Positions 9,339-37,581 of a stretch of 55,959 bases of DNA are shown piece after piece. The translations under genes were made by a program, and so were the position numbers. The notes under the pieces are model-generated. The model was not told the DNA's origin, did not search any database, and saw only the letters and a program-made list of their open reading frames with translations. Positions within the stretch are counted from its first letter, which is position 1. Every line of letters begins with the position of its first letter. The stretch is from contig JAITWO010000063.1 in the NCBI GenBank assembly GCA_031285205.1, positions 1 through 55,959 on the forward strand. The letters are read 5' to 3'. Source of the DNA: Methanomassiliicoccaceae archaeon. GTDB taxonomy: Archaea > Thermoplasmatota > Thermoplasmata > Methanomassiliicoccales > Methanomethylophilaceae.

Positions 9339-9511
9339 ACGGGACCACGCATCCCACAAAACCCTTTACATCCTCCATTTTTGATGTCACCCTGCGTTGA
9401 GACCTTAGTATTTTGATAGATTCGGCCATTGCTTTTACATCGAACGAAAAAAACAATTCTAATTCAGCGTTAACAATATATCAACAGAGAGCATACATAC
9501 CATGATCACTC
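9339..9511 (+). promoter_or_regulatory. Intergenic region with promoter for the GT80-like gene
   Basis: AT-rich spacer of 173 bases without an ORF. A TATA-like AACAATATATC lies at about 9471-9481, some 30-40 bases before the ATG at 9512, so the transcript would have almost no leader. No clear Shine-Dalgarno precedes that ATG. Confidence 0.45.
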
Positions 9512-11188
9512 ATGAAGGCAGACACAGTAGGAAAAGCGATCGCGATTGCACTGTTTGTGATAATCGTCGCCTCGAGCGTATGTTTCGTGTTCACGTACGA
9601 TGACGATTCTGATGAATTTTATCAATCGGAAAAGATCGAGTTTACCCAGATCGGTGACTCGCTTGATGGCACAATAAAGGTTGATATCAAACAGTTAGGA
9701 CTTGACAAAGATGCCGGGAACGTCAAATACAGCATAACAAGGTCTGATTTCGATGTGGCATTGGACGCGGACCTCGACCCAAGCGGCACGATCAGCGTGA
9801 GCGTCCCGTTCCACGGAAGGTACACACTTGAATTAAAGTTCACATCTGGCGGAACGGCCCAGACGGAAAAGATGTCCATCGATTTCTCAGCCAGTCATTA
9901 CAATTTCATAATCACGAATGCGACACTGCCTGTGACCATGTCGATGACAAAGGCGTTCATTGATGAGAACGGCTACACATATGTGCGCCTTGAGCGCGGT
10001 GCAACATTCGAATGGTCGGAATTACCATACGACATCCGCCCGTTCCCGACCCAGTACCAGGATCGCACGGGGACGATCACGACAGGCCAAAGATGGCTTT
10101 CCCCCGGTGAATCAGTAATTATGATCGCATACGTGAAGGAACTCTGCATGCTCAACCCGGATGCGACATTCGCGTGGAGCATCTCTGAGAATTACAGCCG
10201 ATGGTCATACGGAACGCTGTTGGCAGCAGGCGTCCCTGTGGATCAGATGACCATTAACATCTATGCGGACGGTGTCAACTGGTCATCATCCTTCGTGGGC
10301 CAGGGGATGTACAACCAAACCACCTATGAGACCCAGGTCGCAGCGACCAAGGCGAGGATAGACGATATCATCGCAAAGGTACAGGACGGCATAGACCAAT
10401 CATTCGGTTACACCGAGGATTGGAAGGACACATGGGTGCTTGGCGAGGTGTTACCGGAGTATGGTATAAGCGTGAACTACTACTGTTTCGAGGTAACAAA
10501 GAATGCGGTCATGAAACGCATCGACTCATTGCCGGATGGGGAATGGAAGACCAAGCTTCTGGATCTGATGAGTACATACGTCGTCGGCGGTGATCTTTCC
10601 GAGCGGTACGATACATTGAGTGCGATCCCGGACCGGCTCCAGTACTACGAACGCACGTTCAGGCTGGCATGGGATGAGGGCGGTGTTGAGGTACATTTCA
10701 CCGCTGACAGTTCAAACCCGGCGCTCATAATCCTCGGCACCGCTCCGGGACCCCCGCTCAGCGGCATGGGTGAGACGAGCGCGGAGATGGGCGGCGGAAC
10801 ATTCCGTGAGTACATGGAATGGGCGGTCGCCACATACGGAAGCACGCACACGATATACTACAAAGGCCACCCCGGTTGGCCGGTCGACCCCAATAACGCA
10901 TACTTCAAGGATGAGTTCGGCCCCGGCGTCACGAGGCTTGACTGGTTCGAGGCGAACGGGGTGATCATACTTCCGTATCCAACTCCGGCGGAGGTCTACT
11001 TCTTCGTTTCAGATGACGTCTACGGAGGAGGGTACTGGAGCTCAACGTTCAACAGCGTCGACCCTCCGAACGTTCTGTTCGCATTCGGCACAGTTGCATA
11101 CATCCAAGGCATTGCCGGTGCCAACTACGAGGTATTCATCAGTGCAGGAATGCTGATAGTCAACAAACCGTATCTGGATTCGCTGTGA
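9512..11188 (+). CDS. Membrane-anchored protein with a GT80 (Pasteurella/Photobacterium) sialyltransferase-like domain
   Basis: Residues ~8-28 form a hydrophobic anchor. Residues ~40-125 look like an Ig-like beta-sandwich, which marine Photobacterium GT80 enzymes also carry. The rest shows the GT80 motif series in order: IYADG (residues 250-254; Asp253 matching the second Asp of YDDGS, the general base), ILGT (408-411), YKGHP (450-454; catalytic-type His453), PAEVYFF with Glu494, and GGYWSST with Ser510/Ser511 matching the CMP-phosphate-binding Ser pair. Spacings resemble the bacterial enzymes (E to SS 16 here, ~17 there). GT80 enzymes transfer sialic acid from CMP-sialate to galactosides. 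No CMP-sialate synthesis genes are in the window, and the anchor would place the domain outside the cell, so donor and activity are open. Motifs were compared from memory. Confidence 0.72.
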   Translation: MKADTVGKAIAIALFVIIVASSVCFVFTYDDDSDEFYQSEKIEFTQIGDSLDGTIKVDIKQLGLDKDAGNVKYSITRSDFDVALDADLDPSGTISVSVPFHGRYTLELKFTSGGTAQTEKMSIDFSASHYNFIITNATLPVTMSMTKAFIDENGYTYVRLERGATFEWSELPYDIRPFPTQYQDRTGTITTGQRWLSPGESVIMIAYVKELCMLNPDATFAWSISENYSRWSYGTLLAAGVPVDQMTINIYADGVNWSSSFVGQGMYNQTTYETQVAATKARIDDIIAKVQDGIDQSFGYTEDWKDTWVLGEVLPEYGISVNYYCFEVTKNAVMKRIDSLPDGEWKTKLLDLMSTYVVGGDLSERYDTLSAIPDRLQYYERTFRLAWDEGGVEVHFTADSSNPALIILGTAPGPPLSGMGETSAEMGGGTFREYMEWAVATYGSTHTIYYKGHPGWPVDPNNAYFKDEFGPGVTRLDWFEANGVIILPYPTPAEVYFFVSDDVYGGGYWSSTFNSVDPPNVLFAFGTVAYIQGIAGANYEVFISAGMLIVNKPYLDSL

Positions 11189-11195
11189 GCGCAAA

Positions 11196-11228
11196 GGGGT
11201 TCCGGTGACGGAACTCCTCCTTAATTTC
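11196..11228 (+). terminator. Hairpin terminator after the GT80-like gene
   Basis: Eight bases after the stop, GGGGTTCCG pairs with CGGAACTCC (one G-T pair) around a GTGA loop, giving a nine-pair stem. It is followed by a T-rich run (11221-11237). This looks like a terminator of the plus-strand transcript. Confidence 0.5.
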
Positions 11229-11305
11229 TTTTCTTTTGAACAGCGCAAACTCTGAAAGTTATATATTCTAAGAGTCGGAAGCTATAGCGGAAAAATAAGA
11301 GTGAC

Positions 11306-11321
11306 CTGCGCCGCGGCGCAG
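11306..11321. terminator. GC-rich perfect palindrome in convergent spacer
   Basis: CTGCGCCGCGGCGCAG is a perfect 16-base palindrome between the ends of the GT80-like gene and aEF1-beta. Read on the minus strand it is followed within ~10 bases by a T5 run, so it may terminate the zinc-ribbon/aEF1-beta transcript. A binding site is an alternative. Confidence 0.35.
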
Positions 11322-11339
11322 AGAATAAAAACAATAAGT

Positions 11340-11842: not shown

Positions 11843-12574
11843 TCATGCGCCCCGTATTTTTACGTACAGCTTACCGCAGAACTTGCCGAAGCGCCCGCAT
11901 TGGTTGAACGTTGTAAGGACGACGTTACCGCTGATATGGGATTCTCCCTCCGCTCTTTTGCCGAATCTGTATTTTGCCGTAGATATTTTCATGTCGGACG
12001 GGCCGAACTTCAGAAGGTCCAGAAGGACCTTCCATCCTTTCATCTCCAAACCTTTCCAGTTATCCTTTATCACCGGAACGAAGACATCTGTCCTCCCTGC
12101 GATCAGGCCGCTCATGAGGTCCTCGACGATCCTCTTCCCGTGATACAGAAGATACAGGTCGCAGTAGACGTTGAACGCCCACGATCCCGCCCACCGCACG
12201 AATCCCAATGCGAACCTGTCAACTCTGGTGCCAACACAAAGGTCGCACCCCTTTTCCATTTCCTTGTACATATCACCGAGGGCCTCCGGCGGATGCTGAA
12301 AGTCGCAATCGATCGTCATGAAATAATCTGTTCCGCACTCCACTATGCCTTGCAGTACACTTGCTGCCAATCCCCTGTCCTCCGGTCTCCTGGTGACCAG
12401 TCTGGTCTTAGGGTCGTTGAGCTCTTCGATTAATCTTTTAGAAGAATCGGTGGAATTATCGTCCATGAACATTATTCGAAAATCAGGGTAAAGGTTCCTG
12501 ATGTACTTCGCCATGTTGACGATGTTCTTCTCTTCATTATAGGTGGGGATGACGATGGTGCATGTTCCCGGCAT
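11843..12574 (-). CDS. GT2 glycosyltransferase, polyprenyl-phosphate mannose/glucose synthase-like
   Basis: Cytosolic family 2 glycosyltransferase without C-terminal membrane segments, most like dolichyl-phosphate mannosyltransferase (DPM1). TIVIPTYNEEKNI is the nucleotide-binding start, MFMDDNSTDSS and IDCDFQHPPEAL supply the Asp residues for metal and sugar nucleotide, and LMSGLIAGRTDVF the acceptor-loop region. It would load a sugar onto a polyprenyl phosphate used by lumen-side GT-C enzymes, of which the window holds several. ATG at 12574 is preferred over a TTG 36 bases upstream. It follows the acyltransferase gene by 15-50 bases on the same strand. Confidence 0.85.
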   Translation of the reverse strand: MPGTCTIVIPTYNEEKNIVNMAKYIRNLYPDFRIMFMDDNSTDSSKRLIEELNDPKTRLVTRRPEDRGLAASVLQGIVECGTDYFMTIDCDFQHPPEALGDMYKEMEKGCDLCVGTRVDRFALGFVRWAGSWAFNVYCDLYLLYHGKRIVEDLMSGLIAGRTDVFVPVIKDNWKGLEMKGWKVLLDLLKFGPSDMKISTAKYRFGKRAEGESHISGNVVLTTFNQCGRFGKFCGKLYVKIRGA

Positions 12575-12625
12575 GGTCTCGTCCGTAACAACGGAGGACG
12601 GATATATCAAAGGTGCGCCGAGTCG

Positions 12626-13774
12626 TTATTGGGGATGGTATTCTTTCTCCAATCTCTCAAAGGCGCGGTCGTATCTTCTCAGCACAAAATAGGACAACAG
12701 ATGCGCGCCGGCGGCTACCGCGATGGACAGAACAATGCCAAGAACGGTCCCGATAAAGACATTCCCGACCCACAGATGGGCGTAGATGATCACAAGGATA
12801 GTCCAATGCAGGAGGTACAGTTCGTAAGATATGCCCCATTTGGACATAATATCATCTGTGAGCGGGATCTTGGTCAGAAGCACGATCACAATAACAACAA
12901 AAAGCAGCTGCGGGGCCGCATGATGGACCCAATCCGTGCCCGCACTCTCCCAGCCCCACAGAAGGTAGGCTGAAAAGCACACGGCAACCGATACAAAGAC
13001 AGGAAGATTCTTTCTCAGGTTAAGCATCCTCAGCATAATTATCATTATTACGAATGCGGAGCACCTTATGCCCGGTACGAACATGTTATCGGCCCACCAG
13101 CCGTATCCGGTCCCGAACGGTATGAGCAGAACCGCGGTGAGAATGATGAACACAGGAACGAAGAACCGTTTCAGCACGGACACTATCTTTTCAGAGTGAC
13201 AGGACCACACGAGGCCCAATATGAACCCGACGAACGATAATGAGAAAACGATCCTGTCATAATGGGCTGCGAGGATCCATGCCGCTATGGTCGCAAGTAT
13301 CGACAGGACAGCGACGGCGGTCCTGCCGCGTAAAAACACGAACGTGACGAAGAACAGGGCATAGAACACCACCAGTTCCGCCACGTACCACGTCACAGGA
13401 TAAACGAACGGAAACTCGAACACGCGTATCAACATCGCAGGGAGGTTCGAGTATTGAACAAAGGCCACGGCAGTGATCAGCACGCTTATTATGCCGCATA
13501 TGAAGTAAGGTATCAGAAGAGAAGGATACCTCTTAGGTAAGAATGTCCTTAGATATCCCTTTTTATTCTTCACCCCTTCATGAAGGCCGTATCCGGACAG
13601 GAAAAAGAACAGTGCCACAAAGATATACCCGACGCGGCTGATGGCATAGGATTCGAACGCATAGGAGGAATGATACACAACGATCAGGACAGCCATCGCG
13701 AATCTCAGCGATCTGGTGTTCCTCAGGCTGAGCGTGTCATCGTCGAACCTAATCACAGATGTCATCTCTTCCAT
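12626..13774 (-). CDS. Acyltransferase 3 family (OafA/WecH-like) membrane protein
   Basis: Polytopic acyltransferase with about ten membrane segments, 382 residues. The N-terminal ALRFAMAVLIVVYHSSYAF region contains the conserved His, and FVALFFFLSGYGLHEG followed by FLPKRYPSLLIPYF is the characteristic first periplasmic/cytoplasmic pattern of the family. Homologues O-acetylate or otherwise acylate surface sugars. Context next to a GT2 gene and upstream of the heptose operon suggests glycan modification. The donor and target are unknown. Its ATG faces the DUF89 promoter divergently. Confidence 0.87.
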   Translation of the reverse strand: MEEMTSVIRFDDDTLSLRNTRSLRFAMAVLIVVYHSSYAFESYAISRVGYIFVALFFFLSGYGLHEGVKNKKGYLRTFLPKRYPSLLIPYFICGIISVLITAVAFVQYSNLPAMLIRVFEFPFVYPVTWYVAELVVFYALFFVTFVFLRGRTAVAVLSILATIAAWILAAHYDRIVFSLSFVGFILGLVWSCHSEKIVSVLKRFFVPVFIILTAVLLIPFGTGYGWWADNMFVPGIRCSAFVIMIIMLRMLNLRKNLPVFVSVAVCFSAYLLWGWESAGTDWVHHAAPQLLFVVIVIVLLTKIPLTDDIMSKWGISYELYLLHWTILVIIYAHLWVGNVFIGTVLGIVLSIAVAAGAHLLSYFVLRRYDRAFERLEKEYHPQ

Positions 13775-13907: not shown

Positions 13908-14813
13908 ATGGAAATAAGAGCCGAATGCGTCCCGTGCCTGATGAAGAGGGTGCTGTTCCAGGCAAGACTCGCTGATAACGGCACTGAGTTCAAAGCGATG
14001 CGGGCGGCCATGAGAAAATATGCGAAGGAATTCCGGGAAGGGAGGAACTCAGCGGAGGTCGCTACGGAGGTGCACAGGGCGGCATACGCCGCCATGGGCG
14101 TTGACCCGTATGTTAAACTGAAGATAAGAGCTGACGAGGTTGCGGGCGAATACATTGATGCGGCAGAGAGATACATATCGTCATCCGATGACAGAATGAA
14201 GGCGGCGATACTCGTTGCTGCAATAGGCAACATAATGGACTTCGGGATGGGTAAGGCGATCGATGACCCAGACGAGTTCAGGAATGAATTCTGGAATCTT
14301 ATTGATCAAAGGATCGGAAGAGATGATACCGACACGGTGAAGGAGATACTCTCGAAAGCGAAGAAGGTCATTTATGTTTTCGACAACTGTGGGGAGACAC
14401 AACTCGATAGACTACTGATCAGGGAGATCAGGAAAGCAGGCACAAAGGTCATCGGCATAATGAGGGGAGAACCGATCCTGAACGATGCAACGTTGGCTGA
14501 TGCAGAGCGCATCGGCCTTAACAAAGAACTCGATTCAATTCACACGACCGGGGAGTTCAGGATAGGGATCAGATTGAACGCTCTGAGCGATGACCTTAAG
14601 GAAGAGATAGTATCAGCGGACCTGATGATCGCAAAGGGCATGGCCAATTTTGAATCACTGTCAGATCAGGGCGTTCCGATACCGCTTGTCTATATACTCA
14701 GGTCAAAATGCGCCCCGGTCGCGGATGCGTTAGGAATACCGATAGGAGTGAACGCGGTCATCGTCAGGGACGAACGCAAAAAGGATTTACCACAATGCGA
14801 TAGGGTTGCATGA
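13908..14813 (+). CDS. DUF89 damage-control metal-dependent phosphatase
   Basis: DUF89/ARMT1-like phosphatase. The N-terminal AECVPCLMKR has the CxxC of the prokaryotic subfamily. VIYVFDNCGETQLD contains the metal-binding Asp-Asn pair, and IAKGMANFESLSD is the conserved C-terminal block. Family members hydrolyse sugar phosphates or harmful phosphometabolites. The gene leads the heptose operon, with 4 bases to the next ATG, so its target may be a heptose phosphate or by-product; this is inference. Length 301 is normal for archaeal members. Confidence 0.85.
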   Translation: MEIRAECVPCLMKRVLFQARLADNGTEFKAMRAAMRKYAKEFREGRNSAEVATEVHRAAYAAMGVDPYVKLKIRADEVAGEYIDAAERYISSSDDRMKAAILVAAIGNIMDFGMGKAIDDPDEFRNEFWNLIDQRIGRDDTDTVKEILSKAKKVIYVFDNCGETQLDRLLIREIRKAGTKVIGIMRGEPILNDATLADAERIGLNKELDSIHTTGEFRIGIRLNALSDDLKEEIVSADLMIAKGMANFESLSDQGVPIPLVYILRSKCAPVADALGIPIGVNAVIVRDERKKDLPQCDRVA

Positions 14814-14817
14814 TAGT

Positions 14818-15849
14818 ATGAACGTACGTCAGGCAGTGGTGATGGTCGGCGGTAAAGGCACAAGGCTCAGACCTCTGACCAACAACCGTCCGAAACCGAT
14901 ACTTCCGGTCCTTGACAGGCCGTGCCTTTCGTATCTCATCGAATCCCTTGCCAAAGGGGGAATAGAAGAGGTGATACTGGCATGCGGATACCGCTCAGAG
15001 AAGATGAAGGAAGCGATCGGCAACGGTTCCGGAGAAGGAACGGTCATCGATTATTCTTACGAGGATGTGCCCATGGGGACCGCCGGGGCGATAAAACTTC
15101 TGGAGGACAGGCTTGATGATGTATTCGTAGCGGTCAACGGCGACGTTTTTGCTGACATTGATCTAAAGAAGGAGATCGATGAGCACAAGAGGACAGGCGC
15201 ATCCATCACGATATCGTTAACACGCGTCGAGAACCCATGCGAGTTCGGGATAGCAAGACTGGACGGTGACGGAAGGATACTGGAGTTCAAAGAGAAGCCC
15301 AAACCGGAAGAGGTGTTCTCAGATCTGATAAATGCCGGCGTATACGTGATGGAGAAAGAAGTTTTAAAACATGTTCCGAAGGGGCAGATGTACGATTTCT
15401 CGAAAGAGCTGACGATCGATGTCATGAACAAAGGATACAGGGTCCAAGGCCACATGTTAAACGGCATTTGGATGGACGTAGGGAGACCTAAGGACCTTCT
15501 CAGAGCGAACATCACAGCCGCAGAGAGATGGTTCAGTGATCATGAATGGAATGATGTCACAAAAGGGTCAAAGATAACAAAACCGTTATACATCGGACAG
15601 GGCGGGAAGGCAACCGATTCGAAACTATCGCAGTCAATAATATCGAAGGGGTCAGCGGTCAGGCGCTCCGAGATATCCGGATCATTGATCATGGCAGATT
15701 GTGATATATGCGACGCAACCATATCGGGAAGCATAATAGGAGAGGGATGCATCATCAAGAGAGGGTCGATAATTGTTGATTCCGTTGTCGCAGATGATGT
15801 GATCATAGAAGAGAATACAACAGTCAGGGAGAGGACGGTGGAGCAATGA
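14818..15849 (+). CDS. hddC: NDP-sugar pyrophosphorylase, probable heptose-1-phosphate or mannose-1-phosphate guanylyltransferase
   Basis: Nucleotidyltransferase with the motif GGKGTRLRPLTNNRPKPILPVLDRP, the Asp of VAVNGDVFADID, and VYVMEKEV. After ~230 residues a C-terminal hexapeptide-repeat segment (IGQGGKATDSKLSQSIISKG onward) predicts a left-handed beta-helix, which classical HddC lacks and which resembles GDP-mannose pyrophosphorylases. ATG at 14818 is preferred to a TTG at 14806. Its stop overlaps the HddA start (ATGA). The operon makes heptose 1-phosphate activation the likely job, but mannose-1-phosphate activation is a real alternative, so the symbol is provisional. Confidence 0.75.
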   Translation: MNVRQAVVMVGGKGTRLRPLTNNRPKPILPVLDRPCLSYLIESLAKGGIEEVILACGYRSEKMKEAIGNGSGEGTVIDYSYEDVPMGTAGAIKLLEDRLDDVFVAVNGDVFADIDLKKEIDEHKRTGASITISLTRVENPCEFGIARLDGDGRILEFKEKPKPEEVFSDLINAGVYVMEKEVLKHVPKGQMYDFSKELTIDVMNKGYRVQGHMLNGIWMDVGRPKDLLRANITAAERWFSDHEWNDVTKGSKITKPLYIGQGGKATDSKLSQSIISKGSAVRRSEISGSLIMADCDICDATISGSIIGEGCIIKRGSIIVDSVVADDVIIEENTTVRERTVEQ

Positions 15850-16856
15850 AAGAAATGATAAGGGCAAGGGCGCCGCTCAGGATAGGGATGGCAGGCGGAG
15901 GAACCGATGTTGAGCCGTATGCATCGGAAAGGGGAGGATACGTTTTCAACACCACCATAGACAAATACGCATACTGCACGGTCGTTCCGAACGGTAGCGA
16001 CCGTTTAAGTATCGTTTCGTTAGATTACGGGGCCTTTGCCGCACCTCTGGACGGCGGTCCGCTGAAGTATGACGGCAACATGGACCTGATAAAGGCGGTG
16101 AGCAACCATTTCAGGATAACCGACGGTTTTGACGTGTTCATCCATTCCGATGCTCCGCCCGGATCCGGTCTCGGAGGGTCATCCACGGTGATAGTTGCAA
16201 TACTCGGTGCCATCACAGAATGGCTCAACATACGGTTAACGGATCACGAACTGGCGGACCTCGCCTTCAGATTGGAAAGGGAAGAGCTCGGGCTGAAGGG
16301 AGGGAAGCAGGATCAGTATGCCGCCGTATTCGGAGGATTCAATCTGATGGAGTTCAAAAAGCACGGCGTCCGCGTTCATAAGGTGCATTTGAAGGATGAA
16401 ACCGTTAACGAACTGCAATACTGTTCGTTGTTATGCTACACCGGCCGTTCCAGAGATTCGGCGAATATCATCGAAGCACAGATGAAGAGATACGGAGGGG
16501 GAAGCAACGTTGAGGCGTTAGATGCAGCAAAGAAGCTTGCCAAGGACGGGCGGGACGCTTTAATGCAGGGAAATGTCAGGAAATTCGGCGAGATACTGAA
16601 CGAATCATGGGCGCAGAAGAAGAGGTTCACACCGGATGTTACCAACAGCACGGTCGATGAATTGTATTCTGTAGCAATGGACAACGGTGCCATCGGGGGA
16701 AAGGTATCCGGCGCCGGCGGCGGGGGTTTCATGTACTTTGTCTGCGAATATGATAAAAAACATTTAATTGCGAAAGAACTGCAGAAGAAGGGTGCAAGGA
16801 TAACCGATTTCATGTTCGAGAGATCGGGAGTGCAGACATGGAGGCACAGGGAATGA
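15846..16856 (+). CDS. hddA: GHMP kinase, D-glycero-alpha-D-manno-heptose 7-phosphate 1-kinase type
   Basis: GHMP-fold kinase of the HddA group, which phosphorylates D-glycero-D-manno-heptose 7-phosphate at C1. The N-terminus RARAPLRIGMAGGGTDVEPYASERGGYVFN is diagnostic. The ATP-binding loop is PPGSGLGGSSTV (about residues 102-113). GLKGGKQDQYAAVFGGFNLMEF and KVSGAGGGGFMYFV complete the family motifs. Length 336 is normal. It overlaps genes on both sides by 4 bases. Fucokinase or other sugar kinases of this fold are possible, but the GmhA-GmhB neighbour strongly favours heptose. Confidence 0.87.
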   Translation: MKEMIRARAPLRIGMAGGGTDVEPYASERGGYVFNTTIDKYAYCTVVPNGSDRLSIVSLDYGAFAAPLDGGPLKYDGNMDLIKAVSNHFRITDGFDVFIHSDAPPGSGLGGSSTVIVAILGAITEWLNIRLTDHELADLAFRLEREELGLKGGKQDQYAAVFGGFNLMEFKKHGVRVHKVHLKDETVNELQYCSLLCYTGRSRDSANIIEAQMKRYGGGSNVEALDAAKKLAKDGRDALMQGNVRKFGEILNESWAQKKRFTPDVTNSTVDELYSVAMDNGAIGGKVSGAGGGGFMYFVCEYDKKHLIAKELQKKGARITDFMFERSGVQTWRHRE

Positions 16857-17887
16857 GGTCACTGATATCAAACGAGTTAAGAAGCAGTGCGGACACAATA
16901 GCCAGCATAGACGCGGGCATGATAGAAAGGATAGCGGACGTTCTTGTCGAAGTGATAAAGAACGGGAACAAGGTCATATTCATGGGCAACGGCGGATCAT
17001 CCGCAGACGCTTCGCATCTCGCCGCCGAGTTCACAGGACGCTATCTGATGGAGCGCGCACCGATGCCCGCCATCACGTTATCGAACATCGCCCCGGTAAC
17101 AGCGATCGGTAATGATTATTCGTTTGACACCGTCTTCAAAAGGCAGACTGAGGCATATGCGGTCAAAGGGGATGCGGCGATATGCATCTCAACGTCCGGT
17201 AACTCAAAGAACATCATCGAGGCGATGAAGGCCGCGAAGGAAAAGGGAGCGATAACAATATCATTCACCGGTTCCGGAGGAATAATGAAGGACATGGCAG
17301 ACCATGCATTGATCATTCCTTCAAAAGAGACTCCGAGGATACAGGAAGGATACATGGTAGCAGGTCACACGATATGCGGACTCACAGAGAGGGGCGTGTT
17401 CGGAAAGAAGGCCGTGTTCATCGACAGGGACGACACGATCGCCAAGGACGTTCCATACTGCAGCCGCCCCGAGGACATGAAATTATTCAACGGAGTGCCG
17501 AAATCAATAGCAAAACTGAACAAGGCAGGTTACCTGGTAATAATAATAACCAATCAATCCGGCGTTTCAAGAGGAAAGTTCACAACGGAAGATCTGGAAA
17601 GGATCCATAAGAAAATGTACGCCGACATTGAAAAAGAAGGCGGAAAAATAGACGATCTGTTCTACTGTCCCCATCATCCCGACGAGAAATGCGGATGCAG
17701 GAAGCCGGAGGCGGGCATGGGCATCGCCGCCGTTAACAAATACAAGATAAACACAAAGGCATCATTCATGATAGGGAACAGCGATGCCGACGTCGAATTC
17801 GGAAGATCGATCGGATGTGCTTCAATAAAGGTGACAGAGAAGTTCACGTTCAATGACGCTGTAGAACAAATTCTGAAGAGCGGGTGA
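16853..17887 (+). CDS. gmhA-gmhB: GmhA-GmhB fusion: sedoheptulose-7-phosphate isomerase plus heptose-bisphosphate phosphatase
   Basis: Two heptose enzymes in one chain. Residues 1-180 are GmhA: FMGNGGSSADASHLAAEFTGRY, the phosphate loop ISTSGNSKN, and RIQEGYMVAGH with the active-site His172; this isomerises sedoheptulose 7-phosphate. Residues ~186-344 are a GmhB-type HAD phosphatase: nucleophile and acid Asp191/Asp193 in FIDRDDT, TNQSGVSRG, the zinc motif CPHHPDEKCGCRKP, and GNSDADVEFG. DDT replaces the commoner DGT. ATG at 16853 overlaps the HddA stop (ATGA) and aligns with the E. coli GmhA start; an ATG at 16838 is possible. A fused pair co-transcribed with HddA supports metabolic channeling. 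Confidence 0.88.
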   Translation: MRSLISNELRSSADTIASIDAGMIERIADVLVEVIKNGNKVIFMGNGGSSADASHLAAEFTGRYLMERAPMPAITLSNIAPVTAIGNDYSFDTVFKRQTEAYAVKGDAAICISTSGNSKNIIEAMKAAKEKGAITISFTGSGGIMKDMADHALIIPSKETPRIQEGYMVAGHTICGLTERGVFGKKAVFIDRDDTIAKDVPYCSRPEDMKLFNGVPKSIAKLNKAGYLVIIITNQSGVSRGKFTTEDLERIHKKMYADIEKEGGKIDDLFYCPHHPDEKCGCRKPEAGMGIAAVNKYKINTKASFMIGNSDADVEFGRSIGCASIKVTEKFTFNDAVEQILKSG

Positions 17888-20798: not shown

Positions 20799-22706
20799 TC
20801 AGATGTTGTACTTTATCGCCCTGTAGAACCACGGACCTGTTAGGGTTCCTCCGAACCTGTATTTTGCCAGAAGATTGCCCTGATCGTCATATTCGTATAT
20901 GAACGGCCCGTAGGAACAGCCGACAATGTAATTGCCCTCATGTATCTCGGAACTGCCCATGTATTTCGAGTATGCCACCTCGACCGTCCGGACGAGCGTG
21001 CATGTTCCTGTAGCCTCGTCTATCATGTAGATGTCCATCGAAGACCATTGTTTGATGCCGGAATCGTCAATACCGGTGAAATCGTACACATTATCGGTGT
21101 ACGATTCGTTCGATGTGCTCATATCGTTCATATTATTGAAAAGATGAACATAGTACAGGCTCGGGTCGAGAGCGTCACGTCCTATGAACGTGATGGTATG
21201 CTGACCGAGGGTCGGGATTATTCCTGCTCCAGTGTCGACCTTGGTCAGGATAGGTCCGTAGACCGCTAAGTTCGTATTCTCGGTCATTATCCACTCTATC
21301 GTTCTGTTGCCATTGATCTCGTAGAAGTCCCTGATCTTGACGATCGCCGACAGCTCACGGCTACTTACAAGCAACGAATGGGTCCCGTCCAGCTCAGGGA
21401 CGATCGACATGGAGTTACTGTGGAACCAGTCCCTGTTGTTCCTAGAATAATCGTAGCCCGGGAACAGGTCACGCAGGTTGATTTGTGTTATTGCCCCTGT
21501 GTCACGGTCTATGCTCAGTATCTGGTCTTCGACATAAGAATTGGCGGAATCATTCGCCTGTTTCAGGATGTCGTTGTTCGCACCGAAGATGAGGTCATGG
21601 TGGTTGTTGAACCCTGGCGTCTCATAGATCTTGATAACTTCACCCAATGTGCTCACAACGACAACCTTCTCTCTCGTTCCGTCATATATCCAATTCTCCT
21701 CTTCATCGAAGAGCACCCGGGTATACGCATACCCGCAGGTTATGTATCCGCGCCTTACACCATCGTTATCGAAGAGATGTATGTTGAAGCGTGTTCCGTA
21801 CTCAAAGACCGCGAACAGACCGTCCGAGACCTGGCCATTCATCTCCTCGATCGTAAGGTTCGGAACGGTCGTGGAGCATTGTCCGTTGACCTTGAACACA
21901 CTGGCCGCCTGTCCAGAGCCGGTAGTGATATCGAGAATTACCTCGCACAATCTCTGGTGAACGAGTCCCATGACCTGGAACTCATGTACAGTATCGGACG
22001 CACCATTGCTTACCGTCCTTGTGAAATCCCCTATCGCCGGGCTACCGAGCGATTTGATGGTGTAACCGACGCTGCATGCATCCGGCGTTTCAAAATATAT
22101 ATAAAGCCCCAGTTCGTTCGTGCCGAACGGGTTCTTGATCACAAGCGGATGTTCGAAGGTATATGTGTAATCTGTGATCAATTGGTCTATTTCGTCACGG
22201 ACCGCCTGCTGATTCGTCATATCATATATCTCTCTGAACCTTGCGGTGTTGCCAAGCTTCCAGCGATGCAATGTCGAAGAGATCTCAGTGACACTGATCT
22301 CAGAACTGTGCGTGAATTCCGTGTCCCCCAAACTTACATCATCGGGGTCCAGAGCATTGATGGAAATGGTGTACTTGATATCCGTGTCAGGTTTTGTCCA
22401 GGTTGTTGCACTGTTCAGGGACCCAACAGCGGAAAGATCGAAACTGTCGGTCGTTGTTGTGCCTACCAACGTGCCGTTTACCGTTATCTCATATTCATCC
22501 ACTCTATCGGTGGCGTTGATGTATAGTATTCCGCCTGTCAAGCGTACGGTTAGACTGACAGGTAACCACTCATCCCCCCCCCCTCCGGGATCCGTTCCTG
22601 GGTCAGTACCAGGGTCTGTGCCGGGATCATCAGTACCGAATATCACGATCATAGGACACAACAGAACGGACAGGGCAGTCGCAACAGCTAGTAGTTTCAT
22701 ATTCAT
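20799..22706 (-). CDS. Secreted aryl-sulfate sulfotransferase (ASST) family protein
   Basis: PAPS-independent arylsulfate sulfotransferase homologue, 635 residues. A signal peptide or anchor (residues 1-24) is followed by a DPGT-repeat/poly-Gly linker (25-44). A beta-sandwich with LVIKNPFGTNELGLYIYFET (about 188-207) fits the ASST N-terminal domain. The propeller contains FNNHHDLIFG (His369/His370), EDQILSIDRDTGAI, DWFHSNSMS (His429) and SSRELSAIVKI, matching the conserved His and Arg regions of bacterial AssT, where a His is transiently sulfated. It would move sulfate between phenolic molecules or onto surface material outside the cell. Bacterial AssT usually depends on DsbL/DsbI partners, not found here. 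Substrate unknown. Confidence 0.82.
   Translation of the reverse strand: MNMKLLAVATALSVLLCPMIVIFGTDDPGTDPGTDPGTDPGGGGDEWLPVSLTVRLTGGILYINATDRVDEYEITVNGTLVGTTTTDSFDLSAVGSLNSATTWTKPDTDIKYTISINALDPDDVSLGDTEFTHSSEISVTEISSTLHRWKLGNTARFREIYDMTNQQAVRDEIDQLITDYTYTFEHPLVIKNPFGTNELGLYIYFETPDACSVGYTIKSLGSPAIGDFTRTVSNGASDTVHEFQVMGLVHQRLCEVILDITTGSGQAASVFKVNGQCSTTVPNLTIEEMNGQVSDGLFAVFEYGTRFNIHLFDNDGVRRGYITCGYAYTRVLFDEEENWIYDGTREKVVVVSTLGEVIKIYETPGFNNHHDLIFGANNDILKQANDSANSYVEDQILSIDRDTGAITQINLRDLFPGYDYSRNNRDWFHSNSMSIVPELDGTHSLLVSSRELSAIVKIRDFYEINGNRTIEWIMTENTNLAVYGPILTKVDTGAGIIPTLGQHTITFIGRDALDPSLYYVHLFNNMNDMSTSNESYTDNVYDFTGIDDSGIKQWSSMDIYMIDEATGTCTLVRTVEVAYSKYMGSSEIHEGNYIVGCSYGPFIYEYDDQGNLLAKYRFGGTLTGPWFYRAIKYNI
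22574..22583 (-). repeat. Ten-base G tract (coding strand) in the ASST linker
   Basis: Ten consecutive C on the plus strand are ten G in the ASST coding strand, encoding the Gly run between the DPGT repeats and the first folded domain. A change of one base would shift the frame right after the signal peptide. Such tracts act as slippage switches in bacterial surface genes. Confidence 0.8.
22584..22631 (-). repeat. Four 12-base tandem units encoding DPGT-type repeats
   Basis: About four 12-base units (for example GGATCCGTTCCT, GGGTCAGTACCA, GGGTCTGTGCCG on the plus strand) encode the acidic, proline-rich linker of the ASST protein. Third positions differ between units, so the array is not a fresh duplication. 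Copy-number change would keep the frame. Confidence 0.7.
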
Positions 22707-28567: not shown

Positions 28568-29248
28568 ATGAAAAAAACACTTTTTTTAACGGGGGCCAGC
28601 GGGGATATCGGCGGGGCCATCAAGATCTTCTTTGAGCAGAAAGGGTACACGGTCATAGCACCGGCACGAAAGGAACTGGACCTTGCACGGCCAGAGTCCA
28701 TAGCGGAATACTTCGAAGGAAGGTCTTTCGATATCGATACAATAATACATTGCGCCGGCATAAACGACCCACAGTTACTTGAAGACCTGACTCTTGAGAA
28801 TGTTCAGAGGACTGCACAGGTGAATTACATGAGCTTCTTCGAAATTGTAAAGTACCTTGCACCGAGTATGAAAAAGAAGCAACGAGGACACATTTTAGGG
28901 ATATCTTCCGTTTACGGTACGATCGGCAGGCGCGGGAGGCTTGCGTATGCCGCCTCCAAGCACGCACTTAACGGAGTAGTGAAAACCCTTGCATGCGAAC
29001 TCGGTGAGCACAACATCATGGTCAACGCCCTATCGCCCGGGTTTGTCGAGACCCAACTGACACGCAAGAACAACTCGGCGGAGATGATCGAACTGCTCAG
29101 AAGAAAGATCCCGCTGAAGCGCCTTGCGTCGCCTGAGGACATAGCACGGGTCGCTTTCGCACTTTGTTCCGATCTGAATACCTATATCTCGGGTCAGGAC
29201 ATTGTTGCGGACGGAGGGTTCCTTGCCGAAGGAGGGCAGAACTCATGA
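28568..29248 (+). CDS. Short-chain dehydrogenase/reductase of the carbohydrate cassette
   Basis: Classical SDR of 226 residues. FLTGASGDIGGAI is the dinucleotide loop, IIHCAGIND the NAG-like motif, GISSVYG the catalytic Ser, and YAASKHALNG the Y-x3-K pair; SPGFVETQLT and ISGQDIVADGG follow as usual. It probably oxidises or reduces a sugar or cyclitol intermediate made with the three co-directional genes. The stop overlaps the next ATG (ATGA). The first codons contain A7 and T7 runs. Confidence 0.88.
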   Translation: MKKTLFLTGASGDIGGAIKIFFEQKGYTVIAPARKELDLARPESIAEYFEGRSFDIDTIIHCAGINDPQLLEDLTLENVQRTAQVNYMSFFEIVKYLAPSMKKKQRGHILGISSVYGTIGRRGRLAYAASKHALNGVVKTLACELGEHNIMVNALSPGFVETQLTRKNNSAEMIELLRRKIPLKRLASPEDIARVAFALCSDLNTYISGQDIVADGGFLAEGGQNS

Positions 29249-30375: not shown

Positions 30376-30398
30376 AAGCCGATGACAGGAGAGACGAA

Positions 30399-32635: not shown

Positions 32636-33534
32636 CTTCTGACAAAAGAGACCGTGCGGACGATCCCTTCTTTGAAACTGTACTTCGGCACGAATCCCGT
32701 ATCTGCGGTGAGCTCCGTGATGTCCGCGCACAGGAACATCTGCTGATGCGGATAATAGTCCTTGATGCCGAACCTCAATTCAATGTCCGGATCAATAGAA
32801 TCCCTTACATCCGTGACGTATTCCCTAAGGGATCTGCATTCCCCGCTCCCGATCGGATATGTGCTCCCGTCCTTTCCTCGCATGCCTATCGCCAGCAGGG
32901 CGCGGGCAACATCTCCAGTATAGATATAGTCCCATATCTGTTCGCATTTTGTAAGTTCGGGACAGGCCCCGTTCAACAGAGCGCGTATAAGGTACATTAT
33001 CAATGTGTAATCTCTGTCATATTCGCCGTATGAGCTGAATATCCTCGTCCAGCAGAACCTCATGCCCAGCTCTCTGCATAATTTGGCCGATCTTCTGCCT
33101 GCGGAATATTTTGCGATGCCGTACCCACTCGTGGGGTTCGTAGGCGTGTTCCCATCGGCCTTGCCGCTGAGCAGACCGTATTCCGCTTGGGAGCCGACGC
33201 CTATGAATGCAGATGCATTCCAGCTTTTAGCGAGCTTTACGGCATCAATGACGTGATCGGCGTTCCTCATCTGCACGCTCATGTCGTCCCTTCCGCTCAC
33301 AGACGTCTTGTCCCACGCCAGATGGAAGAACAGATCGCATCTGTCGGTGCCCGTCATGCTCCCGTAATCCGAGATGTCACACTCCCTGACAGTTATCTTA
33401 TCCGATCCGGGGATGTGCCCGATCCCGGCAGACCCAGGTCTGGCGATGGCGATGATCTCGTGTCCCTCTTCCAGCGCATGCACAATCAGTGAGATGCCGG
33501 TCATGCTTGTGGCACCGGTCACTGCCAACCTCAA
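32605..33534 (-). CDS. NAD(P)-dependent epimerase/reductase, YerF-like
   Basis: Extended SDR of 309 residues. VTGATSMTGISL is the dinucleotide loop, YGIAKYSAGR the Y-x3-K active site and TRIFSSYG the usual following segment. It is the last gene of rfbF-rfbH-ThDP enzyme-reductase; its TTG start overlaps the ThDP stop by 4 bases (TTGA). In Yersinia yersiniose synthesis the enzyme in this position (YerF) reduces the two-carbon branch added by YerE. CDP-abequose or CDP-paratose synthase-like reductases are related alternatives. Confidence 0.82.
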   Translation of the reverse strand: MRLAVTGATSMTGISLIVHALEEGHEIIAIARPGSAGIGHIPGSDKITVRECDISDYGSMTGTDRCDLFFHLAWDKTSVSGRDDMSVQMRNADHVIDAVKLAKSWNASAFIGVGSQAEYGLLSGKADGNTPTNPTSGYGIAKYSAGRRSAKLCRELGMRFCWTRIFSSYGEYDRDYTLIMYLIRALLNGACPELTKCEQIWDYIYTGDVARALLAIGMRGKDGSTYPIGSGECRSLREYVTDVRDSIDPDIELRFGIKDYYPHQQMFLCADITELTADTGFVPKYSFKEGIVRTVSFVRSHSDSMFHRD

Positions 33535-35351
33535 GCAGATCGATCCTCCATCAGGCCGATATACATGTTCTTCCTGAGTTCATCACGGTCCAGGAAAGGG
33601 AACAGGTCTTCCAGCGGAGGTGAGAAGAGCCTCCCGTCCGGGAGCTTCTTCGTCGCTGATCTGGGTTCGAACTTCTGCTCGATGTCCACGAATACCTCAC
33701 ATATCAGATAGCCTTGCTGAGAAATGATGGAATCAAGCTTTGCTGTCTCACCGTTGCTCTTGATCGAAAAATATGGGAATCCGTACGCACCGGCCAGTTT
33801 AGACATGTCTGGGAAACCGAGGTCCTTGCTCTGGGGCCCGATGCCGCAGAAGTTGGAATTGAAGAGATTCGTCTGTGTCTGTCTTATGGAATGATATCCC
33901 TCGTTGTTTATGACGAATATCTTTATCGGAAGGTCATTCGTCACCACTGTCTGAAGCTCCTGTATGTTCATCTGTATACTTCCGTCCCCGGCGATGCATA
34001 TCGTGTCCTTGAGACCAGATGAGATGCATACGCCGATCGCCGCGGGGAGATCGTATCCCATACTCGCTATCGCGGAATTCACAATGAATCTCTGATCTTT
34101 TTTAATTACAAATGCGTGGCTGCCGACAGCGCATGCGGTCCCGTTCCCAACAACGGTCATTGCCCCTTCCGGGAGCCTTTTGCTCAGTTCCTTCATGAAG
34201 CAGTACGGGTTTGTGAGACCTTCTGATGAATAATGCCTTTCCTGCACTACAGGATATTTATTTTTCCACGTTTGGCACTGTTCTATCCATTCTTCTCCGC
34301 CGAATACTCTGCCTGATGTGCGGTCATCCAACTCTTCAAGCAGGACCCTTACATCCACATGGAGCGGCATGTTCACATGGAGCGTTGGCTTTTTCAGTTC
34401 GGCCTCATCGACATCCTCCATTATTACGAAGGCGTCTCTCGCCCATGTCCCCCAATTGAATCCAACCTGTCTCAGACTGAGCCTGCTTCCTATCGACAGG
34501 ACCAGGTCGCTATTCTGAACGGCAAAATTCCCTGCACGGTCACCGAGCCCCCCTCCTCTCCCCGTGTACAACTGATCATCATCCGGGACCAGGTCAATGC
34601 TGTTCCAGTTCGTTACAATAGGTATATTCAGTTTTCTCATCACTTTTTGGAAAAGATCAAATGATCCGGAAAGCCTGATCCCGTTCCCTGCATAGAGGAC
34701 CGGGCGCTTCGATCTTTTGATACGGTCTATTATTTCATCTACGGTGTCCTGATCGATGTGCATCGGCAGCGTCTTCATGTATTCATGAGGGTCGAAGGAT
34801 ATGAGTTCGTCCGTCTCCACGATCGCACCCTGAACATTCAGAGGGATGTCCAGCCAGCATGGCCCCGGGCGGCCGTGCGCCGCCACGAACAGAGCCTTCT
34901 CGAGACAGTATCTGATCATTTTGGGGTCGGTGACCATATCGCAATACTTGGTCATGCATTCCACAGCTTTAGTGATCTCGAATTCCTGGTCGCCCATCGC
35001 CCGCAACGGGAGTCCGGTGCTCTTTGCCGTGGTGTCGTAACGCACCTGTCCCGATATCACGATCATCGGTACGGAATCGAGCCACCCGCCGACCACCCCG
35101 GTGATCGCATTCGTTCCCCCCGGGCCGGTGGTCACGCAGAGCAGTGCCATTCTGTTGTTCACTCTCGAATAGCTTTCGGCGGCTATCGCGCTCCCCTGCT
35201 CATGATGATTATAATAGCATTTCAGCCGTGCATGGTGGCCGAATGAATCATTGAGGTGCATCGCACCTCCTCCGACGACGGTGAAAACATCCGTTATTCC
35301 GTGATCGGCAATGATATCTGCAATAAGATCGGATACTTTGATCCTCATCAT
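33531..35351 (-). CDS. Thiamine-diphosphate enzyme, acetolactate-synthase-like (YerE candidate)
   Basis: Three-domain ThDP enzyme of 606 residues. Catalytic Glu51 is in NHHEQGSAIAAE, and the cofactor motif is GDGSIQMNIQELQT...VINN. It resembles acetohydroxyacid synthase but ends in a long tail (LPDGRLFSPPLEDLFPFL) typical of polysaccharide-locus members. Just after rfbH it fits YerE, which transfers an acetyl unit from pyruvate to a CDP-3,6-dideoxy-4-ketohexose. Similar enzymes also occur beside aldolase/DHQS cassettes, so the facing operon may share it. An ordinary isoleucine/valine role is unlikely from context. Confidence 0.83.
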   Translation of the reverse strand: MMRIKVSDLIADIIADHGITDVFTVVGGGAMHLNDSFGHHARLKCYYNHHEQGSAIAAESYSRVNNRMALLCVTTGPGGTNAITGVVGGWLDSVPMIVISGQVRYDTTAKSTGLPLRAMGDQEFEITKAVECMTKYCDMVTDPKMIRYCLEKALFVAAHGRPGPCWLDIPLNVQGAIVETDELISFDPHEYMKTLPMHIDQDTVDEIIDRIKRSKRPVLYAGNGIRLSGSFDLFQKVMRKLNIPIVTNWNSIDLVPDDDQLYTGRGGGLGDRAGNFAVQNSDLVLSIGSRLSLRQVGFNWGTWARDAFVIMEDVDEAELKKPTLHVNMPLHVDVRVLLEELDDRTSGRVFGGEEWIEQCQTWKNKYPVVQERHYSSEGLTNPYCFMKELSKRLPEGAMTVVGNGTACAVGSHAFVIKKDQRFIVNSAIASMGYDLPAAIGVCISSGLKDTICIAGDGSIQMNIQELQTVVTNDLPIKIFVINNEGYHSIRQTQTNLFNSNFCGIGPQSKDLGFPDMSKLAGAYGFPYFSIKSNGETAKLDSIISQQGYLICEVFVDIEQKFEPRSATKKLPDGRLFSPPLEDLFPFLDRDELRKNMYIGLMEDRSA

Positions 35352-35352
35352 A

Positions 35353-36687
35353 TCACCTCACGGAGTCGATTATCACTGTGGCCATGTGATCTATCATCTC
35401 GTCCGTCATCCCCGGATACACGCCGACCCAGAAAGTATCGATCATTATCTTATCGGTGACAGGAAGATCGCCTACGGTCTTGTATCCTTTCCCTGAGGCT
35501 CTCATCTCATCAAAGCACGGATGCTTTATCAGATTTCCGGCGAACAGCATCCTTGTTTGGACACCTTTTGATTCTATGTACGGCACCACTTTTTTCCTAT
35601 CCGTGCCTGGTCTGCATGTAAGCAGGAACCCGAACCAGCTCGGCTCGCTTCCCGGCAGCGGCTCCGGCAGAATGAACTTATCCTGCACCTGTGCTAATTT
35701 GGACCTGAGCCTGTCAAAGTTATGGATCCTCCTTTCCCTGAACTGCGGGAACTTCTTCAGTTGCGCACAGCCGACCGCCGCCTGAAGGTCCGTCGCCTTC
35801 AGGTTGTACCCGAAGTGCGAGTATACGTACTTGTGATCATAACCGAACGGTAACTCGCCGTACTGTCTGTCGAACCTGCGTCCGCATAGGTTGTCGACAC
35901 CGGACGGGCATGAGCAGTCCCGTCCCCAGTCTCTCATTGAAACAGTGATCTTATGCAACAACCGGTCGTTAGTATACACTGCTCCTCCCTCGCCCATCGT
36001 CATATGGTGAGGCGGATAGAAACTGGACGTCCCTATATCCCCGACTGTGCCGGTGAATCTCATTCTGTTCTCGTATTGATATTTCGAGCCGAGTGCGTCG
36101 CAGTTATCCTCTATCAGCCAAAGGCCGTTCTCGTCACAGAATTCCTTCACCGCCTCTATGTCGAACGGGTTCCCCAGCGTGTGCGCGATCATCACGGCCT
36201 TGGTCTTTTCCGACAGTGCTCTTTTCAATTGTGACGTATCAATGTTGTACTGCGGTATCGTCATGTCAACGAACACCGGCACGGCACCATACTGTATGCA
36301 CGGCGTAACGGTCGTCGGGAATCCGCATGCAACCGTTATCATCTCGTCCCCCGGCCGTATCGCCCTCTCATTCAGAAGCGGAGAGGTTAGTGCCATGAAC
36401 GCGAGGAGGTTCGCAGAAGAACCGGAGTTCACAAGGCTGCAATGACTTATCCCAAGATATTCGGACAGGGACGATTCGAATTCATTCGTGTACCTTCCGG
36501 ATGTGAGCCAGAATTCAAGGGAGGCATCTACGAGGTTCACCATCTCATCATGATCGTACACCCTCGAAGCATATGGGATGCGCTGACCTTTGACGAATTT
36601 CTTTTTCTTATGATATGTGTCGCAATAATCCGATACCATCTTGAGTATGTCGGACCTCGCTTGTTGCTCTGTTCTCTCGCCGGTCAT
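35353..36687 (-). CDS. rfbH: CDP-4-keto-6-deoxyglucose 3-dehydrase (E1)
   Basis: PMP-dependent, 2Fe-2S-containing dehydrase of the DegT fold, 444 residues. The usual catalytic Lys is replaced by His (SSFYPPHHMTMGEGGAV, His227/His228), the hallmark of sugar 3-dehydrases. Cys196 in EDNCDALG and Cys258, Cys260 and Cys268 (CSCPSGVDNLC) match the E1 cluster ligands; the first spacing is a few residues longer than in Yersinia E1. It removes the C3 hydroxyl of CDP-4-keto-6-deoxyglucose. Bacterial E1 needs the iron-sulfur flavin reductase E3, which is not in the window. The ThDP gene starts one base after its stop. Confidence 0.92.
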   Translation of the reverse strand: MTGERTEQQARSDILKMVSDYCDTYHKKKKFVKGQRIPYASRVYDHDEMVNLVDASLEFWLTSGRYTNEFESSLSEYLGISHCSLVNSGSSANLLAFMALTSPLLNERAIRPGDEMITVACGFPTTVTPCIQYGAVPVFVDMTIPQYNIDTSQLKRALSEKTKAVMIAHTLGNPFDIEAVKEFCDENGLWLIEDNCDALGSKYQYENRMRFTGTVGDIGTSSFYPPHHMTMGEGGAVYTNDRLLHKITVSMRDWGRDCSCPSGVDNLCGRRFDRQYGELPFGYDHKYVYSHFGYNLKATDLQAAVGCAQLKKFPQFRERRIHNFDRLRSKLAQVQDKFILPEPLPGSEPSWFGFLLTCRPGTDRKKVVPYIESKGVQTRMLFAGNLIKHPCFDEMRASGKGYKTVGDLPVTDKIMIDTFWVGVYPGMTDEMIDHMATVIIDSVR

Positions 36688-36774
36688 TCATCCACATCCG
36701 TGTGTTTATCCAAATATCCGAACGTGTTATTAATTGATGCGCCTCCGCAACATAACTCTGGATGCGCGGAAGGC

Positions 36775-37548
36775 TTACCACGTTTTCCACGGAGCCCTGC
36801 CCTTTTTCCAGAGGTCTTCCAATTTTTCTTTATCACGCAACGTGTCCATGCACTGCCAGAACCCGGGATGTCTGAACGCCGCCAGCTGTCCGTCCGCGCT
36901 CAGTTTCTCCAGAGGGTCCCTTTCGAATATGGTGTCATCGCCTCCTTTGATGTAATCGAACACTTCTGGCTCAAGTACCATGAATCCTCCGTTCACCCAT
37001 CCTGCGTCCTCAACCGTCTTTTCCCTGAATGACGCAACCGCATCGCCATTCATATCAAGAATTCCGAATCTGCCGTCTGGACGCACAGCGGTGAGCGTTG
37101 CGCGTTTTCCGCATTTTTTGTGGAACTTCTGAAGCTTGTCGATCTCAACGTCCGACACGCCGTCACCGTAAGTGAGCATGAATGTTTCGCCGTCAACATA
37201 TTTTTTGATCCGTTTTATTCTTCCCCCGGTCATTGTCTCCATCCCCGTGTCGACAACGGTCACCTTCCATGGCTCCGAGACATTGCTGTGTATCTGCATC
37301 TTCCCCCCGTCGGAGAAATCGAACGTAACGTCGCTGCAGTGAAGGAAATAATCCGCAAAGTACTCCTTTATCATTTGTTGCTTGTACCCTGCGCATATCA
37401 CGAAATCGTTCACGCCGTGGTGCGAGTACATCTTCATTATGTGCCAGAGTATCGGCTGCCCGCCTATCTCTATCATGGGTTTAGGTCTGAGGTGGCTTTC
37501 TTCCGATATTCTCGTGCCCAGCCCTCCGGCAAGGATGACAGCTTTCAT
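36775..37548 (-). CDS. rfbF: Glucose-1-phosphate cytidylyltransferase
   Basis: Makes CDP-glucose from CTP and glucose 1-phosphate, the entry step to CDP-deoxysugars. MKAVILAGGLGTRISEESHLRPKPMIEIGG is the nucleotide loop, LHCSDVTFDFSDGG and WKVTVVDTGMETMTGGRIKRI are RfbF-specific, and LTYGDGVSDVEI holds the metal Asp. About 257 residues, the normal length. ATG at 37548 was preferred over one two codons upstream. It leads the CDP-sugar operon with rfbH 87 bases downstream, while rfbG lies 13 kb away in the other orientation. Confidence 0.95.
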   Translation of the reverse strand: MKAVILAGGLGTRISEESHLRPKPMIEIGGQPILWHIMKMYSHHGVNDFVICAGYKQQMIKEYFADYFLHCSDVTFDFSDGGKMQIHSNVSEPWKVTVVDTGMETMTGGRIKRIKKYVDGETFMLTYGDGVSDVEIDKLQKFHKKCGKRATLTAVRPDGRFGILDMNGDAVASFREKTVEDAGWVNGGFMVLEPEVFDYIKGGDDTIFERDPLEKLSADGQLAAFRHPGFWQCMDTLRDKEKLEDLWKKGRAPWKTW

Positions 37549-37581
37549 AACCATAGCTATGAAGGTACAGATATATGATAT

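What the first reader, a model, noticed from the sequence alone, without database searches (positions are those of the whole stretch)
9512..11188. GT80 sialyltransferase-like protein anchored in an archaeal membrane
All four functional motif blocks of GT80 enzymes occur in order (YADG, YKGHP, a PAEV Glu, a GGYWSS Ser pair) with similar spacing, plus an N-terminal Ig-like sandwich as in Photobacterium enzymes. GT80 is known to me from gamma-proteobacteria, not methanogens. The N-terminal anchor predicts an extracytoplasmic domain with no obvious CMP-sugar supply, so the protein may be an unusual transferase or a repurposed fold.
Basis: partly seen in the sequence, partly recalled or inferred. 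Interest (0 to 1): 0.88.

Follow-up and report, generated by a model that had tools for sequence, protein, structure and literature searches.

The report
Exported sialyltransferase-like orphan in methanogen
A one-of-a-kind surface-anchored protein in a methane-producing archaeon carries, in the right order and nearly the right spacing, the active-site residues of a rare bacterial enzyme family that attaches sialic acid, but its kinship is suggestive rather than proven and the genome shows no sialic-acid supply.

Summary
The 558-aa ORF at 9512-11188 (+) and its motifs are real: N-terminal membrane anchor, then Y-A-D253-G, K-G-H453-P, P-A-E494-V and G-G-Y-W-S510-S511. These are the positions of PmST1 D141, H311, E338, S355 and S356. 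Spacings are 200/41/16 against 170/27/17. I found a further shared block, ATLP (137-140), equal to A[ST]LP of all six GT80 proteins I compared, at nearly the same distance from the catalytic Asp. With six GT80s, automatic alignment puts every block in register and matches 24 of 53 GT80-invariant columns (500 shuffles: mean 13.3; score reached by 0 of 500 shuffles and 0 of 66 real proteins). Profile searches are not significant, PF11477 does not hit, and both AlphaFold models are too poor (pLDDT 35) to test the cleft. No relative was found in any collection searched. Export is not odd: all four GT80 genes with their N-termini intact carry an export signal. The genome lacks NeuB and a nonulosonate CMP-synthetase, but the same glycan island encodes CDP-glucose synthesis (RfbF, RfbH). 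Best reading: a very divergent, exported GT-B glycosyltransferase of the GT80/GT38/GT52 superfamily, GT80 nearest, donor unknown. It is not a demonstrated GT80 member.

The parts
9512..11188 (+). ORF of 558 aa, candidate exported GT-B (GT80-like) glycosyltransferase; orphan
9533..9595 (+). N-terminal hydrophobic anchor, about residues 8-28, no lipobox
   Evidence: (hydropathy), sequence
9668..9904 (+). probable Ig/FnIII-like beta-sandwich, about residues 53-131 (weak)
9920..9931 (+). ATLP block (137-140), aligned to A[ST]LP of GT80 N-domain
10262..10273 (+). YADG block; D253 aligned to catalytic base D141 of PmST1
10736..10741 (+). G409-T410 after strand ALIIL, aligned to F(I/V)F(T/I/V)GT of GT80 C-domain
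10862..10873 (+). KGHP block; H453 aligned to H311 of PmST1
10991..10993 (+). E494, aligned to E338 of PmST1
11039..11044 (+). S510-S511, aligned to S355-S356 of PmST1
9339..11339 (.). malic enzyme to EF1B interval: a slot with different cargo, often glycan-related, in sister genomes
11843..13774 (-). GT2 glycosyltransferase and acyltransferase genes; absent between EF1B and the ARMT1-like gene in the sister genomes read there
14806..17887 (+). sugar-1-P nucleotidyltransferase, HddA-like heptose kinase, GmhA-GmhB fusion: NDP-heptose route
33531..37554 (-). acetolactate-synthase-like TPP enzyme, RfbH, RfbF (glucose-1-phosphate cytidylyltransferase): CDP-sugar route in the same island

Best explanation
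It is a very divergent, membrane-anchored, extracytoplasmic enzyme with a GT-B fold from the superfamily of metal-independent inverting bacterial sialyltransferases (GT80, GT38, GT52), with GT80 the nearest known family, probably behind an Ig-like linker domain. Proposed mechanism, inferred from aligned residues: D253 deprotonates the acceptor hydroxyl, H453 of KGHP protonates or stabilises the departing nucleotide phosphate, S510/S511 bind that phosphate, and E494 holds the ribose of a cytidine nucleotide. The product would be a glycan on the archaeal surface. Shown: the gene, the anchor, the residues, their order and spacing, the alignment excess, and the glycan-gene setting. Inferred: the fold, catalysis, a cytidine donor and the acceptor. 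The donor is probably not a home-made nonulosonic acid. How an activated sugar would reach the outside is unknown, as it is to my knowledge for exported bacterial GT80s.
For: Motif order and spacing. MAFFT L-INS-i and G-INS-i place all blocks, including ATLP and GT, in register with six GT80s, and hhalign aligns 58 columns through GHP, E and GG-x-x-SS (P 0.012 for the one comparison). 24 of 53 GT80-invariant columns match; the BLOSUM score over them, 122, exceeds all 500 shuffles (max 107) and all 66 real control proteins (max 90). Secondary structure of the unseeded model agrees in order: strand 220-225, helix 226-238, strand 246-251 ending at YADG, helix 270-298, strand 402-407 ending near GT, helix 431-442 (low confidence). 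GT80s also carry export signals, and the P. damselae enzyme has an extra N-terminal region before its GT-B domain. The gene lies in a slot filled with glycan-type genes in two sister genomes, beside a long surface-glycan island.
Against: No profile significance: hmmsearch --max 0.1-0.3 bits, which shuffles also reach; Pfam, NCBIfam and PDB negative; pairwise scores within shuffle range. Models are low-confidence, and GT80 hits of the GT80-seeded model are circular and weak (E 0.02, TM 0.15). The first acidic residue of D/E-D/E-G is Ala. There is no family of its own to show that the motifs are conserved. No NeuB and no nonulosonate CMP-synthetase, although the assembly is only 87% complete. 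I noticed the ATLP match after seeing the alignment.
Confidence: 0.52

Rival explanations
1. Chance resemblance: an orphan exported surface protein of another fold whose short motifs happen to line up with GT80.
For: No significant profile or pairwise score. No homologues to show conservation. Orphan surface proteins are common.
Against: Invariant-column score beyond all 500 shuffles and 66 real proteins; extra ATLP and GT blocks in register; predicted strand/helix order agrees.
Confidence: 0.3
2. A GT-B relative that has lost glycosyl transfer: a surface glycan-binding or structural protein on a sialyltransferase-like scaffold.
For: A252 replaces the first acidic residue of the D/E-D/E-G motif; no donor pathway for sialic acid in the genome; extracytoplasmic site.
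Against: The proposed base, acid, ribose-binding and phosphate-binding residues are all retained, which a binding-only protein would not need.
Confidence: 0.13
3. A true GT80 sialyltransferase gained by recent transfer from a gammaproteobacterium.
For: Motif set and exported design as in GT80.
Against: 17-20% identity; PF11477 negative here while scoring 265-636 bits in true GT80s; GC and codon usage native to the genome; no sialic-acid pathway.
Confidence: 0.04

Closest known systems
GT80 sialyltransferases: PmST1 (2ex0), P. damselae ST0160 (4r83), Photobacterium alpha-2,3 enzyme (2zwi)
   Same: D, H, E and SS positions in order; A[ST]LP and GT blocks; a hydrophobic N-terminal export segment; extra N-terminal region as in ST0160
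   Different: 17-20% identity, no profile hit, ADG instead of DDG, longer D-H and H-E spacings, different C-terminal end, archaeal host without NeuB, anchor without a lipobox
GT38 polysialyltransferase (Mannheimia MhPST, PMC5517516)
   Same: Spacing H-E 32 and E-S 16 in MhPST (H291, E323, S339) against 41 and 16 here; N-terminal membrane anchor; base in a D/E-D/E-G loop
   Different: No Pfam hit at the settings used; MhPST acts on a lipid-linked capsule precursor that is exported only when finished (PMC5517516); no ATLP comparison was possible
GT52 (NST type)
   Same: HP and D/E-D/E-G motif logic (PMC4202792)
   Different: No Pfam hit at the settings used; not aligned here

Membership tests
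GT80 (Pfam PF11477, PM0188) | Scores above the family profile cut-off | tested here: not met
   No PF11477 hit in hmmscan, 0 of 61 relatives incl. own genome; the same search gives 265-636 bits in three known GT80 genomes
GT80 (Pfam PF11477, PM0188) | Catalytic and donor-binding residues D141, H311, E338, S355, S356 in order and spacing (residues from PMC4202792) | tested here: met
   D253, H453, E494, S510, S511 aligned automatically; spacings similar, not equal
GT80 (Pfam PF11477, PM0188) | D/E-D/E-G motif | tested here: not met
   YADG: only the second acidic residue is present; all six GT80s compared have YDDG
GT80 (Pfam PF11477, PM0188) | Two-domain GT-B fold with these residues in the cleft | tested here: inconclusive
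   AlphaFold2 pLDDT 34.5 and 35.9; Foldseek not significant
GT80 (Pfam PF11477, PM0188) | Exported or lipid-anchored | tested here: met
   Hydrophobic N-terminal segment; export signals in the four GT80 genes with intact N-termini
GT80 (Pfam PF11477, PM0188) | Transfers sialic acid from CMP-Neu5Ac | not testable with these tools
   Needs an assay; the genome lacks NeuB and a nonulosonate CMP-synthetase
GT-B sialyltransferase superfamily (GT38/GT52/GT80) | HP motif plus upstream acidic-G base motif plus downstream E and S/T | tested here: met
   definitions from PMC5517516 and PMC4202792
GT-B sialyltransferase superfamily (GT38/GT52/GT80) | Sequence-profile evidence of homology | tested here: inconclusive
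   Not significant by HMMER or hhalign; beyond shuffles by invariant columns

The most novel reading that the evidence does not exclude
The protein founds a new family of archaeal surface GT-B transferases related to bacterial sialyltransferases, acting outside the cell with a cytidine-linked donor other than sialic acid, possibly a CDP-dideoxy sugar of the RfbF/RfbH/TPP-enzyme route in the same island, or a host-derived sialic acid by CMP-assisted trans-transfer.
Probability: 0.12. Interest if true: 0.78.

Novelty: new variant of a known kind. Interest (0 to 1): 0.46.

Why it matters
To my knowledge GT80 is known only from a few gammaproteobacteria, and exported GT80 enzymes already pose the question of where their activated donor comes from. 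A distant archaeal counterpart in a cell without a sialic-acid pathway would widen the superfamily beyond sialic acid and give a second system in which to ask how nucleotide-sugar enzymes work outside a cell.

Tried and rejected
Relatives were sought in 147 genomes of the order, 390 of the phylum and 400 of the class (with a mixed profile), and in genome contigs, viral contigs, phages and plasmids: none. Weak hits whose ORFs I read proved unrelated: dicarboxylate-transporter-like, ATP-grasp-like, radical-SAM-like and beta-lactamase-like proteins. The PF02348 hit in the own genome (L002) is a short MobA/CobY-like fragment next to a CobS-like gene, not a CMP-sugar synthetase. A first 4-member GT80 profile misplaced E494; adding 2zwi and a V. 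harveyi plasmid GT80 corrected it. More GT80s were sought in 369 gammaproteobacterial and 330 genomes of the P. damselae family: no further ones. Folding with GT80s in the alignment did not lift confidence; its GT80 hits are circular and not counted. Pfam US3 (E 0.02) and NCBIfam GspJ (E 0.2) are sub-threshold noise.

Full report
WHAT IS THERE. The ORF 9512-11188 (+, ATG, 558 aa) is intact. Its GC, GC3 and codon usage are those of the neighbouring genes, so it looks like a resident gene and not a recent import from an AT-rich donor. It has one hydrophobic stretch near the N terminus (about residues 8-28), a net charge of -36 and three cysteines. With a short, weakly positive start before the anchor, the bulk should lie outside the cell (inference).

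MOTIFS. YADG (251-254), YYKGHP (449-454), PAEV (492-495) and GGYWSS (506-511) are present as described. In four GT80 proteins the D-H, H-E and E-S distances are 170-172, 27 and 17; here they are 200, 41 and 16. The functional residues of PmST1 (Asp141, His311, Glu338, Ser355, Ser356) and the D/E-D/E-G and HP motifs are taken from PMC4202792. This protein has A-D-G in place of D/E-D/E-G. A loose motif chain (YxDG, GHP, E, SS with wide gaps) arises in 12 of 400,000 shuffles.

IS IT HOMOLOGY? Standard statistics say not proven. Pfam, NCBIfam and PDB sequence searches do not return GT80. A 4- or 6-member GT80 profile gives only 0.1-0.3 bits with all filters off. Pairwise scores are within the shuffle range. 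hhalign gives P 0.01, on the GHP segment with four sequences and on 58 columns spanning GHP, E and GG-x-x-SS with six. A test that does not pick motifs by eye is more favourable. The protein was aligned automatically with six GT80s (P. damselae, Bisgaard taxon 45, P. oralis, PmST1, V. harveyi plasmid, 2zwi), and agreement was scored at columns invariant in all six. It matches 24 of 53; 500 shuffles average 13.3 (3 reach 24 or more). Its BLOSUM score of 122 is reached by none of the 500 shuffles (maximum 107) and none of 66 real proteins (maximum 90). The alignment depends on the members used: with the smaller sets that lacked the 2zwi-type members, E494 was mostly placed wrongly.

STRUCTURE. 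The single-sequence model has mean pLDDT 34.5; the one seeded with three GT80s has 35.9. Neither can test the cleft. GT80 entries top the Foldseek list of the seeded model, but that is circular and weak (E 0.02, TM 0.15). The unseeded model gives strands just before YADG and GT and helices where GT80 sequences suggest them, and its N-terminal strands match FnIII, Ig and PKD domains weakly.

DISTRIBUTION. I found no relative in 147 genomes of the order, 390 of the phylum, 400 of the class, or the viral, phage, plasmid and genome-contig collections. Those scans reach close relatives best; metagenome contigs could not be searched. PF11477 itself is rare: absent in 61 archaeal relatives, present in three positive-control genomes, and otherwise absent in 369 gammaproteobacteria and 330 genomes of the P. 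damselae family.

SURROUNDINGS. The gene sits between a malic enzyme and an EF1-beta gene. In sister genomes of the same genus this interval is short and without a gene (G050), or holds a TylF and an FkbM methyltransferase (G052), a GT4 glycosyltransferase (G051) or a small unknown ORF (G049). So it is a slot with changing, often glycan-related, cargo. To the right lies a long surface-glycan island: GT2 and acyltransferase; a heptose route (HddA-like kinase, GmhA-GmhB fusion, nucleotidyltransferase); several GT4 and GT87/PMT-type glycosyltransferases; a Polysacc_synt-type protein; an arylsulfotransferase; and RfbF and RfbH with an acetolactate-synthase-like TPP enzyme. RfbF and RfbH score above their NCBIfam cut-offs and indicate CDP-glucose-derived deoxysugars; with the TPP enzyme this recalls the yersiniose route (own knowledge, untested). 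NeuB is absent in the own genome and its seven genus relatives, and present in 3 of 61 genomes searched. The only CTP_transf_3 match is a short MobA/CobY-like fragment beside a CobS-like gene. The assembly is 87% complete, so absence is not final.

EXPORT IS NOT THE ODD PART. The P. damselae and V. harveyi GT80 proteins begin with lipoprotein signals (LSAC, ISGC) and the Bisgaard taxon 45 and P. oralis ones with signal peptides. The question of where the donor comes from outside the cell therefore belongs to GT80 as a whole.

VERDICT. Most likely (about 0.52) a highly divergent exported GT-B transferase of the sialyltransferase superfamily, nearest to GT80 by its motif set, probably not a sialyltransferase fed from inside this cell. 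Chance resemblance remains a serious rival (0.30). It works like a GT80 on paper; it is not shown to be one.

Noticed in passing
window 33531-37554 (-): RfbF (glucose-1-phosphate cytidylyltransferase, 420 bits), RfbH (697 bits) and an acetolactate-synthase-like TPP enzyme lie together, next to an NAD-dependent epimerase/dehydratase (32605-33534): a CDP-dideoxy, perhaps yersiniose-like branched-sugar route in an archaeon.
   Followed up: partly
window 20799-22706 (-): A 635-aa protein with arylsulfotransferase (ASST) and Arylsulfotran_N Ig-like domains, unusual to me in an archaeon and another candidate extracytoplasmic glycan-modifying enzyme.
   Followed up: no
window 28568-32635 (+): SDR, AroB-related putative sugar-phosphate phospholyase (TIGR04425, below its cut-off), HMGL-like aldolase fused to about 270 further residues, and HAD phosphatase in a row: looks like an undescribed cyclitol or higher-sugar route.
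   Followed up: no
window 14806-17887 (+): HddA-like heptose kinase, GmhA-GmhB fusion and sugar nucleotidyltransferase next to an ARMT1-like phosphatase; the order is kept in sister genomes (L039, L041, L043).
   Followed up: partly
window 9339-11339; L039, L040, L041, L042: The malic enzyme-EF1B interval carries different genes, or none, in species of one genus, as a cargo slot would.
   Followed up: partly
L049 2899-4113: A GT80-like gene annotated as hypothetical protein on conjugative plasmid pvh5 of Vibrio harveyi (57% identical to the typed alpha-2,3-sialyltransferase-like query), with a lipoprotein signal.
   Followed up: no
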